Origin: a virus
Length of the DNA stretch: 37,963 nt
Virus record (IMG/VR): IMGVR_UViG_3300039049_000065
Location: 1 to 37,963 of that record
Reading direction: 5' to 3' (one strand)
Below, in pieces: positions 19,758 to 27,181 of this stretch (the stretch's first letter is position 1; every line of letters starts with the position of its first letter). The position numbers were made by a program, and so were the translations under genes. The notes beneath the pieces were generated by a model. The model was not told the DNA's origin and did not search any database. It saw only the letters and a list, made by a program, of their open reading frames with translations.

Positions 19758-19957
19758 TGGATAGCGAAAGAATTTATTTTCGGGCATCATGCCAAAAACA
19801 ATATGATGCTATACACCACTTAGCACAAGAGTTTGGTTGCTCTGCATCACAAATAGTAAGGTTTGCAATGGACGAATGGCTAAGAGAAAATTTTATTAAA
19901 CAAATAGAATTTGCTCAAGCTACAAGAGAAATAAACTTTCTGAAAAAAGTGGAATGA
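19757..19957 (+). CDS. Ribbon-helix-helix-like DNA-binding protein
   Basis: 66 aa. RIYFRASCQKQYDAIHHLAQEFGCSASQIVRFAMDEWLRENF has the strand, helix, GxSxSxIVRxA helix order of Arc/CopG ribbon-helix-helix proteins. It sits directly before the C5 DNA methyltransferase (4-bp overlap) and may regulate it or the plus-strand early promoter. The call rests on the pattern; no operator was identified. Confidence 0.62.
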   Translation: MDSERIYFRASCQKQYDAIHHLAQEFGCSASQIVRFAMDEWLRENFIKQIEFAQATREINFLKKVE

Positions 19958-20859
19958 AAAAGCTAACAATTTTAGATACATTTAGCGGTATAGGGGGTTT
20001 CTCTTATGCCGCTGAACGTCTTGTTGGGGGTTTTGAAACAACACAGTTTGTTGAAAACAATCCTTACTGTCAAAAAATTTTAAAAAAACATTGGCCAAAC
20101 GTACCTATTCACGATGACATCAAAACATACACAGCAAAACCTTTTCAGTTTGACGTCCTCTGCGGAGGGTTCCCCTGTCAGGATTTATCCGTTGGAGGCC
20201 AACGCCAAGGAATCACGCCCGAGACACGTTCTGGACTTTTCTTTGAACTTGTCAGAATCATTCGCTTGGTACGACCCCGGTACGTTTTGTTGGAAAACGT
20301 GGCAGCGTTGCTTAATTTCGGAATGGACATTGTTCTCAGGGAACTTTCCGAAGCAGGGTACGATGCTGAATGGTCGGTTATATCAGCCGAACAAAGAGGC
20401 GCTTGTCATAAAAGAGAAAGAATTTGGATCATTGCCTACCCCAAACACAATGGATTATCTACCGCCGAGGGGGTTGGATTCAATGATAAAACAGACACAG
20501 AAACACAGGAAAGGGCGCAAACAGATAGGCAACTTGAGGGAAGCAGTAAACCCAGTAGCGGTAGAACTCTTCAACAAGTTACAGAATCTACCGACCCCAT
20601 GTTCAAGGGATTACAAGGACGCCGGGGAAAATTTAAACTTCAAAAAGATAGCGGAGAAAGGCAAGTTATCTGGCGTTCTCAACCACACTTACTCAACCCA
20701 AACTGGAAAGGGTACATATCTCAACCCACCGTTTGTAGAAGAAATGATGGGCTATCCAATCGGGTGGACAGACTACGCGCCCTCGGAAACAGCATAGTCC
20801 CAGCCGTAGCAACAATACCACTTGGAAGAATACTTGACCTTGAAAAAAATGAGTACTGA
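19954..20859 (+). CDS. dcm: DNA (cytosine-5-)-methyltransferase
   Basis: 301 aa. Motif I LDTFSGIGGFSYAAE (7-21), motif IV GGFPCQDLS with catalytic Cys75 (71-79), motif VI ENV (114-116), motif VIII QRGACHKRERIWI (147-159), motif IX/X RVDRLRALGNSIVPAVA (270-286). It transfers methyl from S-adenosylmethionine to C5 of cytosine. The region between motifs VIII and IX, where the target-recognition domain sits, is only about 110 residues and low-complexity; a second gene (20114-20797) lies in another frame over this part. The enzyme probably modifies phage DNA and supplies the substrate of the dioxygenase at 24736. Preceded by an ATGA overlap with the RHH gene. Confidence 0.95.
   Translation: MKKLTILDTFSGIGGFSYAAERLVGGFETTQFVENNPYCQKILKKHWPNVPIHDDIKTYTAKPFQFDVLCGGFPCQDLSVGGQRQGITPETRSGLFFELVRIIRLVRPRYVLLENVAALLNFGMDIVLRELSEAGYDAEWSVISAEQRGACHKRERIWIIAYPKHNGLSTAEGVGFNDKTDTETQERAQTDRQLEGSSKPSSGRTLQQVTESTDPMFKGLQGRRGKFKLQKDSGERQVIWRSQPHLLNPNWKGYISQPTVCRRNDGLSNRVDRLRALGNSIVPAVATIPLGRILDLEKNEY
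20114..20797 (+). CDS. Embedded overlapping gene inside dcm (SPVRIYP / LNPPFVEEMMGYPIGWTD family)
   Basis: 227 codons, open in the +1 frame relative to dcm and entirely within it. It has features of a protein family I remember from phage and metagenome proteins near C5-methyltransferases: an SxEGSPVRIYP start, CWKTWQRC (59-66), FPKQGTMLNGRLYQ, two LPTP repeats (107-110, 159-162), RDYKDAG, and a C-terminal LNPPFVEEMMGYPIGWTD (203-220). The last motif uses the same DNA as motif IX/X of the methyltransferase; GSPVRIYP overlies motif IV. No ribosome site is seen at 20114, so initiation is unclear. Function unknown; an accessory of the methyltransferase is the natural guess. Confidence 0.6.
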   Translation: MTSKHTQQNLFSLTSSAEGSPVRIYPLEANAKESRPRHVLDFSLNLSESFAWYDPGTFCWKTWQRCLISEWTLFSGNFPKQGTMLNGRLYQPNKEALVIKEKEFGSLPTPNTMDYLPPRGLDSMIKQTQKHRKGRKQIGNLREAVNPVAVELFNKLQNLPTPCSRDYKDAGENLNFKKIAEKGKLSGVLNHTYSTQTGKGTYLNPPFVEEMMGYPIGWTDYAPSETA

Positions 20860-23279: not shown

Positions 23280-23421
23280 AGACTACATTGTCTACGACCC
23301 ATTGCAAAAATGCAATTATAGAATCCTAAACGGCAAGCGTATTTGGTTACAGCCTAAACCTGTAGAGTTTTATCCTAAGAAAAAAGGGTTAAACTCAGAA
23401 CAGATACACCTCGACTTATGA
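23251..23421 (+). CDS. 56-aa basic protein
   Basis: ATG at 23251 overlapping the previous gene by 29 bp, stop in an ATGA overlap with the ParB-like gene. Sequence pattern: MQGLSYRLSKDYIVYDPLQK, then NYRILNGKRIWLQPKPVEFYPKKKG. Compact beta-rich basic protein. The exact overlap with the next start supports expression. Function unknown. Confidence 0.62.
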   Translation: MQGLSYRLSKDYIVYDPLQKCNYRILNGKRIWLQPKPVEFYPKKKGLNSEQIHLDL

Positions 23422-24038
23422 CCCAAACACCGAGCTACCCAATCGTAGCCCCAGAGCATATAAAGCAATCAAGAATTATTGACCTTACACTATACAAAAA
23501 TAATCCTCGAGTTCATAGCGAAATTCAGATTGAACGGCTGGTTAATTCTTTAAAAGAGTTTGGTTTTACAAATCCTGTTCTTATAGACGATACCGGGAAT
23601 GTGATTGCTGGACATGGAAGGATTACAGCAGCAAAAAAAATTGGAATGGATTCAGTTCCAACAATTACCCTATCCCATCTATCAGAAGAGCAACGTAAAG
23701 CGTACATTATTGCAGACAATCAACTGGCCCTTAACTCATCTTGGGACGATGACCTATTAAAGAAAGAATTAGAACAATTATCAGAAACTGGTTTTGATCT
23801 TTCACTACTCGGTTGGGGGGACGATATTCCAACCTTTGCAGATGAACCTGACTACGGTTCTTTGGACGACTTCGATGACCCAACTGACGCACTAGCCAAC
23901 AACGTCTATAAAGCAATTCAGATAGAATTTAGACCGGAAGATTATGAACACGCAAAAGCTATAGTTGCAGATGCTAGAAAAAAAGGAATCTATGTAGGCG
24001 AAGAGCTAGTTAAAGCATTAGAACAAATCATTAAATGA
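23418..24038 (+). CDS. ParB-domain protein of the DNA-modification cluster
   Basis: 206 aa. IIDLTLYKNNPRVHSEIQIERLVNSLKEFGF, PVLIDDTGNVIAGHGRITAAKKIG (motif at 60-72) and VPTITLSHLSEEQRKAYIIADNQL match the ParB N-terminal domain found alone or fused to DNA methyltransferases in phages. The C-terminal part (about 130-206) is acidic then helical. It overlaps the FkbM gene by 4 bp. In phages with TET/JBP-type dioxygenases, ParB-domain genes are recurrent neighbours (recollection). It may bind DNA or NTP and position the modifying enzymes; nuclease activity is not shown. Confidence 0.85.
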   Translation: MTQTPSYPIVAPEHIKQSRIIDLTLYKNNPRVHSEIQIERLVNSLKEFGFTNPVLIDDTGNVIAGHGRITAAKKIGMDSVPTITLSHLSEEQRKAYIIADNQLALNSSWDDDLLKKELEQLSETGFDLSLLGWGDDIPTFADEPDYGSLDDFDDPTDALANNVYKAIQIEFRPEDYEHAKAIVADARKKGIYVGEELVKALEQIIK

Positions 24039-24739
24039 AATTATCCCAAGGAGAGATTAACGGTATTAAATTTTTTTACCGGGAGGGTTTTTCTGATGCC
24101 AAAACTTTCATAGAAGTACTTAAGCAAGATTGTTACCAAAAAAAAGGAATGACCATTAAGGCCAACGAATCGTGGCTTGATTGTGGCGGTAATGTAGGTG
24201 CTTTTTCATTATTGGCAGCCTCAAAAGGTGCATCAACTGTTTGTTATGAGCCTGACCCTTACAGCTGCGAAATGATAGAAAAAAACCTTAAATTAAATGG
24301 TTTTGAAAATGCAGTAGAAATAAAAGAAGCGGCTCTTGTCCATGATGAAAGAAAGTCTACAATTTTAACTATCGGGCCTAACGGCGGGGTTTGGCGTAAT
24401 TCAATAATGCACAAAGGCATTAGGAAAAAAGGTATTAAAGTACCTTGTATAAATTTTGATTCTCAAGCCGCTTTAGCCGATAATTGTAAAATGGATATTG
24501 AAGGCGCAGAAATACCAATTCTGACGCATAGTATGGCTACCTTTGAAAAACTTGTTTATGAATGGAGTTTTGATTATGACCCATACATACCAAAACTTTG
24601 GAATGTGATCGACAAACAAAAAGCTGATTACCGAGTAGAAGCAGAATACAAGTCTCTGCACTATGTTGAAAGGGACGTTACATTTTGGGGTGCTACTTGG
24701 TTTCCTAAAAACTCTATGGTTTATTGCTTTGCATTATGA
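24035..24739 (+). CDS. FkbM-family S-adenosylmethionine methyltransferase
   Basis: 234 aa. Motif I WLDCGGNVGAFSLLA (47-61), YEPDP (71-75) binding the cofactor ribose, and CKMDIEGAEIPIL (151-163) are hallmarks of the FkbM (Methyltransf_21) family of O-methyltransferases. FkbM enzymes methylate sugar or other hydroxyl groups. The gene overlaps both the ParB gene and the dioxygenase gene by 4 bp. In that setting the likely acceptor is an oxidised base or its adduct in phage DNA, for example the hydroxyl of 5-hydroxymethylcytosine; this is inference. A role in lipopolysaccharide or protein methylation is an alternative. Confidence 0.88.
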   Translation: MKLSQGEINGIKFFYREGFSDAKTFIEVLKQDCYQKKGMTIKANESWLDCGGNVGAFSLLAASKGASTVCYEPDPYSCEMIEKNLKLNGFENAVEIKEAALVHDERKSTILTIGPNGGVWRNSIMHKGIRKKGIKVPCINFDSQAALADNCKMDIEGAEIPILTHSMATFEKLVYEWSFDYDPYIPKLWNVIDKQKADYRVEAEYKSLHYVERDVTFWGATWFPKNSMVYCFAL

Positions 24740-25518
24740 AACTACCTGAACTAATCCTGAAGCCTGTCACATCGCCCCTTAAAATCGGCGATTCTGTAGG
24801 TGGTTTTGAGCCTAACGTATTTGATGATTGTGTTTTAATCGACCCCGATGGAACCCCAGTAGGATTATTTATAAAAACTTTGCCAGATGATTTGCAGAAC
24901 TTAGTTAACATTGCAGACCGGGAGATACAAACAAAGAGAGTTCCTAAATCTGATATGCGCCGTTCTAGTGGTTTGCATGATGAGGAATCAGAAGTTAAAC
25001 AGTATTCAACTATTCTCGGTTCTTGTCCACCAAAACCACACATGAGAAGGCCATACGCTACCCGGTCATCAGTTCACGCCGTAAAAAGTGCCAATATTTT
25101 TGCAAAGGCAATGCACGTTGCTGGTATTAAATCGTTTGAACTTGTTAAAAAATTTATTCCAACCGTGGCAGATGCACACCTTATGAAAATACGCGAAAGG
25201 ATACCAGAGCAATGGCGTTTTGCTAATAATTTTTCTTCTACAATTTCTAATTGCAATATTTCCGCGCCAGTTCATCAAGACCACGCCAACGTAAAAGGTG
25301 CTATAAATATGATAATTACCAAAAGGCGTAACAGCAAAGGAGGTAATCTTCATGTACCTGATTACAACGCTACCTTTGACCAAACTGATAATTCATTATT
25401 GGTTTACCCAGCTTGGCGCAATCGTCACGGAGTTACCCCGATTATTCCTACATATCAAGGCGGCTACCGTAACTCTCATGTGTGGTACGCCCTTGACTCT
25501 TTTAACAAACTAACCTAG
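24736..25518 (+). CDS. TET/JBP-like 2-oxoglutarate/Fe(II) dioxygenase (probable 5-methylcytosine oxidase)
   Basis: 260 aa from the ATG at 24736, overlapping the FkbM stop (ATGA). The double-stranded beta helix is C-terminal: APVHQDHANVKG gives iron ligands His180 and Asp182, GGNLHVPDYNATF is the family's central strand pattern, NRHGVTPI gives His231, and GGYRNSHVWY gives Arg245 for 2-oxoglutarate. The arrangement, including FANNFSSTISNCN before the HxD, matches TET/JBP phage enzymes shown to oxidise 5-methylcytosine. A cytosine C5-methyltransferase in the same genome supplies the substrate. The N-terminal about 100 residues are a distinct region of unknown fold with Cys and Met-Arg-Arg motifs. 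It ends in TAGTG with the terminase small subunit. Confidence 0.85.
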   Translation: MKLPELILKPVTSPLKIGDSVGGFEPNVFDDCVLIDPDGTPVGLFIKTLPDDLQNLVNIADREIQTKRVPKSDMRRSSGLHDEESEVKQYSTILGSCPPKPHMRRPYATRSSVHAVKSANIFAKAMHVAGIKSFELVKKFIPTVADAHLMKIRERIPEQWRFANNFSSTISNCNISAPVHQDHANVKGAINMIITKRRNSKGGNLHVPDYNATFDQTDNSLLVYPAWRNRHGVTPIIPTYQGGYRNSHVWYALDSFNKLT

Positions 25519-25841
25519 TGGACAAAAAGAAAGCAACACAGGCAGAAAAAGAACATAGAACTTACAGAATAGCTGCGTTACTTGCGCGTGGTGTAACTCG
25601 GTCAGAAATAATAAAATATACCGCGGCTGAGTGGGGGTTGAAGTTAAGACAGACAGAGCAGTATATCCAAGATGCGCGTATCGTTCTCAAGAAAGATTTT
25701 GATATTGACAGAAGGCAATTTACCGCGGACATTTTAAGCCAGCTTTCTACGCTGCAAAAAGAGGCCAGAAACAACAACCAATTACACGTTGCTTTAGGGT
25801 GTATAAATGCAATGGCTAAGATCGCCCAAATTTCAACATGA
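25518..25841 (+). CDS. terS: Terminase small subunit
   Basis: 107 aa, GTG start overlapping the dioxygenase stop (TAGTG). ALLARGVTRSEIIKYTAAEWGLKLRQTEQYIQDARIVLKKDF is an HTH-like DNA-binding segment, followed by a helical oligomerisation part (DILSQLSTLQKEARNN). Small and immediately upstream of TerL with an ATGA overlap, so it is almost certainly the DNA-recognition subunit of the packaging motor. Confidence 0.85.
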   Translation: MDKKKATQAEKEHRTYRIAALLARGVTRSEIIKYTAAEWGLKLRQTEQYIQDARIVLKKDFDIDRRQFTADILSQLSTLQKEARNNNQLHVALGCINAMAKIAQIST

Positions 25842-27181
25842 GCATACTTTCTAAGGAGGGTTCAGTACTTGATCGCCCCGGTAGCGCTGGTATTTCGGTT
25901 GATATTGATGTATTGCTAGAAAGAATAAGAAACGACTTACACGAACCACAAAAGGCTTTTTTTGATGATAATTCCACAGAAATATTAGGACTTTCGGCTG
26001 GTTATGGTGCTGGCAAGACTAGGGCATTATGCGCGGCTTGTGTGAAACTAGCTGCGTTGAACGTAGGATTTACCGGGGCTGTTATGGAGCCAACAGGGCC
26101 ATTAATCCGTGATATATGGCAAACAGACTTTGAACAGTTTTTGGAGCATTATGAAATACCCTACACGTTTAGAGCTAGTCCACTTCCGGAGTATATTTTG
26201 CACCTACCGGGAGGGGATACCAAGATATTGTGCAGAAGTTTTGAAAACTGGTCACGCATAATCGGATTAAATTTAGCTTTCGTGTTGGCAGATGAAATAG
26301 ATACAGTAGCCCCAACAGTTTGCGATAGAGCCTTTCCTAAAATACTTGGAAGGCTAAGGGCTGGCAATGTAAGGCAGTTTTGCGCGGCAAGTACCCCAGA
26401 AGGTTTTAGGTGGATGTGGAATACGTTTGGCTCTGACGAAGCAAAGGAAAGGGAGGACAGAAAGCTAATACGAATGAGGACACAAGACAACCCACACTTG
26501 CCAGACGACTTTATTGAAAGAATGCAAAGCAACTACGACCCTAGTATGTTGCAAGCCTACCTCAATGGAGAATTTACAAATCTAACTACCGGGCAAGTTT
26601 ATGACCGTTTCGTCAGGGCTGATAATGTAGTTAACTCGGTTCCTGATTATTCGCGGGAGCCTTTGAGAATCGGGGTGGACTTTAATATTGGAAATATGAG
26701 CGCCGTTATCGGAATTAAATTAAATGATGAATTGTTAATAATTGATGAGATTGTATCAGCACATGATACAGATGCACTTGCTCAAGAAATCAAACGCCGA
26801 TACCCTACCAGTAAGATTTATGTTTATCCTGACGCAAGCGGAGGGAATCGCTCTACAAATGCAAGCAAAACAGATATACAGATTCTTGAAACCTATGGCT
26901 TCACTAATCTATCAGCAAAAAGCAACCCGCCAATACGCGATAGGGTCACAGCCGTACAGGGTTTGTTATGTAACGGAAAAGGGAAAGTACGTTTACAAAT
27001 CAATGCCAGTTGCAAACGTATGATTGAATGTTTAGAGTTGCAATCATATACTGAAAAGGGCGAGCCAGATAAGGAGGCCGGGTACGATCACATGAATGAT
27101 GCGCTAGGTTATTTGATCTGGCGGGAGTTCAACCCACTTCATGCACGTTCTGGTCGTGGAACTGGTGTTCGATTGTATTAA
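25838..27181 (+). CDS. terL: Terminase large subunit
   Basis: 447 aa. Walker A GYGAGKT (55-61), Walker B AFVLADEID (147-155), motif III-like AASTPEGF (183-190), then a nuclease domain with GVDFNIG (Asp281), YPDASG (Asp332) and YDHMNDALGYLIW (Asp417, Asp421). This is the ATP-driven packaging motor and headful or cos nuclease. Translationally coupled to TerS. The packaging type cannot be decided here; the circular assembly is compatible with permuted headful packaging or with cos ends. Confidence 0.96.
   Translation: MSILSKEGSVLDRPGSAGISVDIDVLLERIRNDLHEPQKAFFDDNSTEILGLSAGYGAGKTRALCAACVKLAALNVGFTGAVMEPTGPLIRDIWQTDFEQFLEHYEIPYTFRASPLPEYILHLPGGDTKILCRSFENWSRIIGLNLAFVLADEIDTVAPTVCDRAFPKILGRLRAGNVRQFCAASTPEGFRWMWNTFGSDEAKEREDRKLIRMRTQDNPHLPDDFIERMQSNYDPSMLQAYLNGEFTNLTTGQVYDRFVRADNVVNSVPDYSREPLRIGVDFNIGNMSAVIGIKLNDELLIIDEIVSAHDTDALAQEIKRRYPTSKIYVYPDASGGNRSTNASKTDIQILETYGFTNLSAKSNPPIRDRVTAVQGLLCNGKGKVRLQINASCKRMIECLELQSYTEKGEPDKEAGYDHMNDALGYLIWREFNPLHARSGRGTGVRLY

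What the first reader, a model, noticed from the sequence alone, without database searches (positions are those of the whole stretch)
24035..25518. Minimal DNA cytosine hypermodification pathway: C5-methyltransferase, TET/JBP dioxygenase and FkbM methyltransferase
Seen: a C5-methyltransferase (19954-20859), a 2-oxoglutarate/Fe(II) dioxygenase with H180-x-D182...H231...R245 in the TET/JBP arrangement, and an FkbM methyltransferase whose gene overlaps the dioxygenase gene by 4 bp. Known: phage TET-like enzymes oxidise 5-methylcytosine to 5-hydroxymethylcytosine, which other enzymes then decorate, usually with sugars. No glycosyltransferase is visible here. Inference: the FkbM enzyme may methylate the new hydroxyl directly, giving 5-methoxymethylcytosine or a similar base, a short three-step route I do not know as described. 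Such DNA would resist many restriction enzymes.
Basis: partly seen in the sequence, partly recalled or inferred. Interest (0 to 1): 0.93.

Follow-up and report, generated by a model that had tools for sequence, protein, structure and literature searches.

The report
Phage cassette predicted to methylate hydroxymethyl-thymine
A marine cyanophage carries a compact, widely shared three-gene cassette (ParB, a methyltransferase and a TET-type oxygenase) that probably oxidises the methyl group of thymine in the phage's DNA and then caps it with a new methyl group, which would give a DNA base not described in the literature I could search.

Summary
The genes are there: a C5-methyltransferase, an FkbM methyltransferase and a TET/JBP-type dioxygenase. 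The cytosine pathway is not supported. The true unit is ParB-FkbM-TET-TerS-TerL, in overlapping genes. The C5-methyltransferase lies 3 kb away and was found in only 1 of 42 related contigs, in none of 3 marine isolate genomes that have TET plus FkbM, and in none of 7 actinophages with a related TET. No thymidylate-synthase-type hydroxymethylase is present, so TET should make the hydroxymethyl group in situ, most likely on thymine. Relatives with 75-79% identical TET carry ADDT and kinase genes of thymidine hypermodification instead of FkbM. In one pair of phages ParB, TET and TerL are 97, 90 and 93% identical and FkbM/glycosyltransferase is exchanged. This FkbM subfamily occurs beside TET in 134 of 135 loci. 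Best reading: thymine to 5-hydroxymethyluracil (TET), then O-methylation by FkbM to 5-methoxymethyluracil. Chemistry is inferred. Isolated phage P-HS2/MED4-184 has the cassette and no C5-methyltransferase, so LC-MS of its DNA would decide.

The parts
23418..24038 (+). ParB/Srx N-terminal domain protein (206 aa), first gene of the cassette
   Evidence: PF02195 E=2e-6 over cut-off; phrog_620 ParB-like E=3e-50; conserved directly upstream of FkbM/TET in relatives
24035..24739 (+). FkbM-type SAM methyltransferase (234 aa), tailoring-slot gene
   Evidence: PF05050 E=4e-10; profile match to PDB 2py6 'Methyltransferase FkbM' E=1e-4; class I methyltransferase fold, pLDDT 93; TET neighbour in 134 of 135 close relatives
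24736..25518 (+). TET/JBP 2-oxoglutarate/Fe(II) dioxygenase (260 aa); Fe ligands H180, D182, H231, 2OG-binding R245
   Evidence: Tet_JBP weak sequence match; fold matches NgTET1 Z 19.2, TET2 19.0, CcTet 17.4, CMD1 16.5, next FTO 14.3; ligand residues invariant in 88 relatives
25518..25841 (+). small protein (107 aa), probable terminase small subunit by position
   Evidence: no Pfam family; phrog_34910 of unknown function; between TET and TerL in close relatives; TerS role is inference
25838..27181 (+). terminase large subunit, end of the overlapping gene run
   Evidence: PF17289/PF03237 over cut-off, phrog_2 terminase
19954..20859 (+). C5-cytosine methyltransferase: accessory gene, judged NOT part of the cassette
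   Evidence: PF00145 E=1e-41; present in 1 of 42 related contigs, 0 of 4 phages, 0 of 7 actinophages

Best explanation
The unit is a DNA thymine hypermodification cassette, ParB-[tailoring slot]-TET, expressed as one run of overlapping genes leading into the terminase. TET hydroxylates the 5-methyl of thymine in phage DNA, giving 5-hydroxymethyluracil (inferred). FkbM, which occupies the tailoring slot in this phage, transfers a methyl group from SAM to that hydroxyl, giving 5-methoxymethyluracil (inferred). ParB probably brings the enzymes to DNA (inferred). The cap would protect DNA where bare 5hmU protects little. Shown here: gene content, conservation, fold, strict FkbM-to-TET dependence and slot exchange. 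Not shown: any chemistry.
For: Fold and catalytic residues of TET/JBP. FkbM close relatives sit next to TET in 134 of 135 loci, the one exception being cut off by the contig end, while 65 TET loci have no FkbM match at all and one more (L069) only a distant one. The slot exchanges FkbM for PF20691 TAGT, ADDT/kinase genes or nothing; 34 changes on a tree of 101 TETs; L050 (FkbM) and L069 (TAGT) are 97/90/93% identical in ParB/TET/TerL. Thymine: no C5-methyltransferase in 41 of 42 contigs, in MED4-117, MED4-184, HTVC112P, or in 7 actinophages (motif scan); no PF00303 synthase/hydroxymethylase in 25 records; TETs 75-79% identical to FkbM-linked TETs are linked to ADDT plus a P-loop kinase (L221, L260); L194 has ADDT, FAD-oxidase-like protein, FkbM, kinase and TET in one run. 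Position 253, where TET2 His1904, NgTET1 His297 and CcTet Arg393 contact the base (PMC11040006), is Leu in 85 of 88. 5hmU alone resists only about 8% of Type II enzymes (PMC7653180), so a cap has a use.
Against: No nucleoside has been measured. The pocket argument is one residue; Asn at 185 matches TET2 Asn1387, so the pocket does not exclude 5mC. JBP itself could not be compared. FkbM enzymes are best known on sugars and natural products, and its model resembles nucleic-acid methyltransferases only at the level of a common fold. This phage and one near-identical one do carry a C5-methyltransferase, and 5 of 16 high-light Prochlorococcus genomes have one, so some 5mC could be present. Methylation of a carboxyl or ring position is not excluded.
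Confidence: 0.55

Rival explanations
1. One reading: the phage C5-methyltransferase makes 5mC, TET makes 5hmC, FkbM makes 5-methoxymethylcytosine.
For: All three genes are in this window. The TETs that are the nearest solved folds act on 5mC. Asn185 aligns with TET2 Asn1387.
Against: C5-methyltransferase absent from 41 of 42 related contigs and from every related isolate searched; 3 kb away with a RusA gene on the other strand between; nearest relative is in Synechococcus phage S-H1, and no Synechococcus phage was among the phages with a match to this TET; ADDT/kinase partners of close TETs point to thymine.
Confidence: 0.1
2. TET makes 5hmU (or a further oxidised base) and FkbM methylates another site: the carboxyl of 5-carboxyuracil as an ester, a ring position, or an amino group made by other enzymes.
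For: TETs can oxidise stepwise. In L194 FkbM sits with ADDT and a weak FAD-oxidase match (E=0.002), a set that could make an aminomethyl group for N-methylation.
Against: In the common cassette no enzyme making an amino group is seen, and exchange with glycosyltransferases fits a hydroxyl acceptor.
Confidence: 0.2
3. FkbM modifies a sugar, lipid or host glycan and has nothing to do with DNA.
For: Usual activity of the FkbM family (general knowledge).
Against: 134 of 135 close relatives are next to TET, also with the gene order changed (ParB-FkbM-TET, and ParB-TET-FkbM in L003, L177, L188), in a cassette that otherwise holds DNA-modifying genes.
Confidence: 0.07

Closest known systems
Phage TET/JBP gene clusters with ParB, kinase and aGPT-Pplase/ADDT (predicted by Iyer et al. 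2013, not held, recalled; cited for phage CaiB in PMC9302106)
   Same: ParB next to TET next to the terminase, in overlapping genes; here also found in marine relatives with ADDT and kinase
   Different: FkbM takes the place of the ADDT/kinase tailoring genes
TET plus TET-associated glycosyltransferase (TAGT, PF20691) with a C5-methyltransferase: glycosylated 5hmC in phages (Burke et al. 2021, recalled, not held)
   Same: TET followed by decoration of the hydroxymethyl group; TAGT occupies the same slot in relatives
   Different: No C5-methyltransferase in the cassette; a methyl group in place of a sugar; probable thymine substrate
Kinetoplastid base J pathway (JBP thymine hydroxylase plus glucosyltransferase; general knowledge)
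   Same: in situ thymine hydroxylation by a TET/JBP enzyme, then a cap on the hydroxyl
   Different: methyl cap; phage; JBP could not be compared here
tRNA mnm5U route (MnmC: FAD oxidase plus methyltransferase; general knowledge)
   Same: resembles the oxidase plus methyltransferase pair in L194
   Different: DNA; FkbM-type methyltransferase; resemblance by gene content only

Membership tests
TET/JBP dioxygenase | HxD...H Fe(II) ligands and Arg binding 2OG | tested here: met
   H180, D182, H231, R245 invariant in 88 relatives
TET/JBP dioxygenase | double-stranded beta-helix fold nearest to TET enzymes rather than AlkB/FTO/PHD | tested here: met
   NgTET1/TET2/CcTet/CMD1 Z 19-16, FTO 14, AlkB 13
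TET/JBP dioxygenase | Pfam PF12851 over its curated cut-off | tested here: not met
   window protein 22.7 bits against 34.9; the distant relative HTVC112P gp18 scores 103 bits. Described as a divergent relative on fold and residues
5mC-oxidising TET | His/Arg base contact (TET2 His1904, NgTET1 His297, CcTet Arg393) | tested here: not met
   Leu253 in 85 of 88 (residue roles from PMC11040006)
5mC-oxidising TET | activity on 5mC DNA | not testable with these tools
   needs enzyme assay
FkbM methyltransferase | PF05050 over cut-off and the K-x-D-I/V-E-G-x-E motif | tested here: met
   40.4 against 22.7 bits; K152, D154, I155, E156, G157, E159 invariant in 54
C5-methyltransferase/TET/TAGT cytosine pathway | conserved C5-methyltransferase partner | tested here: not met
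   1 of 42 contigs, 0 of 4 and 0 of 7 phage genomes
Thymidine hypermodification pathway | hydroxymethyluracil-directed tailoring genes (kinase, ADDT) in the same operon | tested here: inconclusive
   absent from the window; present with 75-79% identical TETs (L221, L260) and together with FkbM in L194; kinase matches to Pfam are weak in the marine loci
Queuine tRNA-ribosyltransferase (PHROG 6059 label) | tRNA-guanine transglycosylase domain | tested here: not met
   Pfam scan finds only Tet_JBP; fold is TET: the PHROG label is a misannotation

The most novel reading that the evidence does not exclude
A common class of marine phages makes 5-methoxymethyluracil in its DNA by an exchangeable ParB-FkbM-TET cassette, and FkbM is a general methyl cap for 5-CH2-X thymine derivatives (in L194 perhaps 5-methylaminomethyluracil). 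I found no description of 5-methoxymethyluracil as a DNA base or of FkbM as a DNA-base enzyme in the held literature.
Probability: 0.45. Interest if true: 0.8.

Novelty: new variant of a known kind. Interest (0 to 1): 0.66.

Why it matters
It turns an unlikely-looking gene triple into a testable, widespread system: one oxygenase clade that installs a hydroxyl on thymine and a swappable gene that decides how it is capped (methyl, sugar, amino acid, none). If right, phages use the cheapest possible cap, a methyl ether, and a new DNA base can be looked for at once in a cultured Prochlorococcus phage. FkbM enzymes would gain a DNA substrate, and the many TET/ParB phages labelled "queuine tRNA-ribosyltransferase" could be re-annotated.

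Tried and rejected
phmmer of the single TET protein against PDB gave mainly repeat-driven TAL effector matches, each far too weak on its own: rejected as artefact. The PHROG/RefSeq label queuine tRNA-ribosyltransferase: rejected. The 'DNA methylase' label of the ParB gene in MED4-117/184: no methylase domain in the window homologue, which matches ParB_N only. Asn185 as a thymine-specific residue: rejected, because TET2 has Asn1387 at the same place (PMC11040006). FkbM fold search: only shows a class I methyltransferase; no substrate can be read from it. Six-frame TAGT search missed L081/L083, where a direct Pfam scan of L081 found it, so negatives of that search are weak; I relied on the own-profile scan. 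A scan for further L194-like operons found only L194 itself. The KIN label of KayaCho (L135) in the census rests on a profile match not checked by Pfam. Iyer 2013, Burke 2021 and Lee 2021 could not be read here (Iyer and Lee looked up and not held; Burke not found by search), so prior mention of FkbM there could not be checked.

Full report
Observation. The window is a virus record of 37,963 bases. Its nearest cultured relatives by these proteins are the Prochlorococcus siphoviruses MED4-184/P-HS2 and MED4-117. The dioxygenase start is ATG 24736; it overlaps FkbM by 4 bp. ParB (23418-24038) overlaps FkbM by 4 bp, the small gene at 25518 overlaps the dioxygenase by 1 bp, and TerL overlaps that gene by 4 bp. 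This is one unit, ParB-FkbM-dioxygenase-TerS(?)-TerL. The C5-methyltransferase lies 3 kb upstream, with a RusA gene on the other strand in between.

What the dioxygenase is. Pfam Tet_JBP matches only weakly, but a profile of its relatives matches TET2 (E=6e-5), CMD1 and NgTET1 among solved structures, and nothing else up to E=1. An AlphaFold2 model from 81 relatives has mean pLDDT 95. VIA-align ranks NgTET1 (Z 19.2, rmsd 3.0, 214 aligned), TET2 (19.0), CcTet (17.4) and CMD1 (16.5) above FTO (14.3) and AlkB. H180, D182, H231 and R245 are invariant in 88 sequences.

What FkbM is. It matches PF05050 over cut-off, and PDB 2py6 'FkbM' by profile. The model (pLDDT 93) is a class I methyltransferase whose best matches are RNA methyltransferases such as RlmK and Trm5 at Z about 15. 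The fold does not tell the substrate.

The C5-methyltransferase is not part of it. A PF00145 search of whole records found it in 1 of 42 contigs that carry this TET (the near-identical phage of L009), in 0 of 4 phages (MED4-117, MED4-184, HTVC112P, Tonitrus) and in 0 of 7 actinophages with a related TET (Tonitrus counted again). A motif scan of the first loci found only the window's gene. Many of these contigs are fragments, but the isolates were searched whole. Its relatives occur in 1,442 phage records as an ordinary phage methyltransferase; the nearest is in Synechococcus phage S-H1, and no Synechococcus phage was among the records with a match to this TET. Hosts cannot be counted on for 5mC: 5 of 16 high-light Prochlorococcus genomes have a C5-methyltransferase (the genomes may be incomplete).

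The tailoring slot. In 264 TET loci (125 groups at 95% TET identity) the stretch between ParB and TET holds FkbM most often; otherwise it is empty or holds a TAGT glycosyltransferase, ADDT/kinase genes or other genes (identities from Pfam). The slot changes at least 34 times on a quick tree of 101 TETs (parts weakly supported). L050 (FkbM) and L069 (TAGT) have ParB 97%, TET 90% and TerL 93% identical, so a methyltransferase and a glycosyltransferase have been exchanged in an otherwise conserved locus. L034, 88% identical to the window in TET, has no slot gene at all. Close FkbM relatives (E under 1e-70) have TET beside them in 134 of 135 loci, the last being cut off, while 65 TET loci have no FkbM match and one more, L069, only a distant one. 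No locus has TAGT and this FkbM together; the distant FkbM of L069 is on the other strand, 4 kb away. The gene order may change: HTVC112P, L177 and L188 have ParB-TET-FkbM. FkbM thus needs TET, TET does not need FkbM, and FkbM stands where a sugar transferase stands in sister phages. The simplest reading is that FkbM acts on the hydroxyl that TET makes.

Which base. There is no C5-methyltransferase to make 5mC in most of these phages and no PF00303 hydroxymethylase in any of 25 records, so the hydroxymethyl group should be made in DNA from a methyl that is already there: thymine. Actinophage relatives combine TET with ADDT and Ploopntkinase3 (Tonitrus, CaiB, Kozie), the ADDT gene being annotated aGPT-Pplase2 (glutamyl/putrescinyl thymine) in Tonitrus. 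In the marine clade L221 and L260 have ParB, a GATase-like protein, ADDT, a P-loop kinase-like protein and TET; their TETs are 75-79% identical to TETs with FkbM. L194 has ParB-ADDT-FAD-oxidase-like-FkbM-kinase-TET; its ADDT is over cut-off, its oxidase and kinase matches are weak. At position 253, where TET2 His1904, NgTET1 His297 and CcTet Arg393 bind the base (PMC11040006), this family has Leu (85 of 88). Asn185 equals TET2 Asn1387 and does not discriminate. Together these favour thymine, without proof.

Purpose. DNA with 5hmU throughout resists about 8% of Type II enzymes and further decoration raises this (PMC7653180). A cap on 5hmU would therefore be useful. The run of genes into the terminase suggests modification late, before packaging (inference).

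Novelty. Phage TET/ParB/ADDT/kinase clusters and TAGTs are known kinds. FkbM as an alternative cap in these cassettes, and 5-methoxymethyluracil as a DNA base, did not turn up in the searches of the held library; the key papers (Iyer 2013, Burke 2021, Lee 2021) could not be read, so this is not a full check. I file it as a new variant of a known kind.

Limits. All chemistry is inferred. IMG/VR contigs are mostly fragments. The identity clusters and the quick tree give counts of changes that are approximate.

Noticed in passing
window 20084-20797 (+), inside the C5-methyltransferase gene 19954-20859: A 237-codon open frame in the +1 frame of the methyltransferase gene (227 aa from ATG 20114); 0 of 2000 synonymous-codon shuffles reach that length (max 195). 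Homologues at 30-36% identity lie in another frame within C5-methyltransferase genes of phages S-H1 (L293), ctjLE16 (L294) and Mwe-JY08 (L292): a conserved overlapping gene pair; no Pfam family.
   Followed up: partly
L194:5777-9944: ParB-ADDT-FAD-oxidase-like-FkbM-kinase-TET in one run; oxidase plus methyltransferase recalls MnmC of tRNA and could make 5-methylaminomethyluracil in DNA. No second copy found.
   Followed up: partly
L144:5628-9952: ParB-FkbM (distant) followed by a 433 aa protein with a CxxxCxxC motif (radical-SAM-like by eye, no Pfam family) and preceded by a DNA-methyltransferase-like protein (by eye, not scanned); no TET seen. A possible oxygen-free counterpart of the cassette.
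   Followed up: no
PHROG 6059 and RefSeq records such as NC_020857.1, NC_051582.1: TET/JBP proteins of many phages are labelled queuine tRNA-ribosyltransferase; the window protein has no such domain.
   Followed up: yes
L227:4155-5060, L241:901-1839, L223:6877-7599: Unknown slot genes between ParB and TET: a protein of about 300 aa shared by L227 and L241 that looks like a glycosyltransferase by eye, and an unrelated 241 aa protein in L223; no Pfam match for L227 and L223. Candidates for further base-tailoring enzymes.
   Followed up: no
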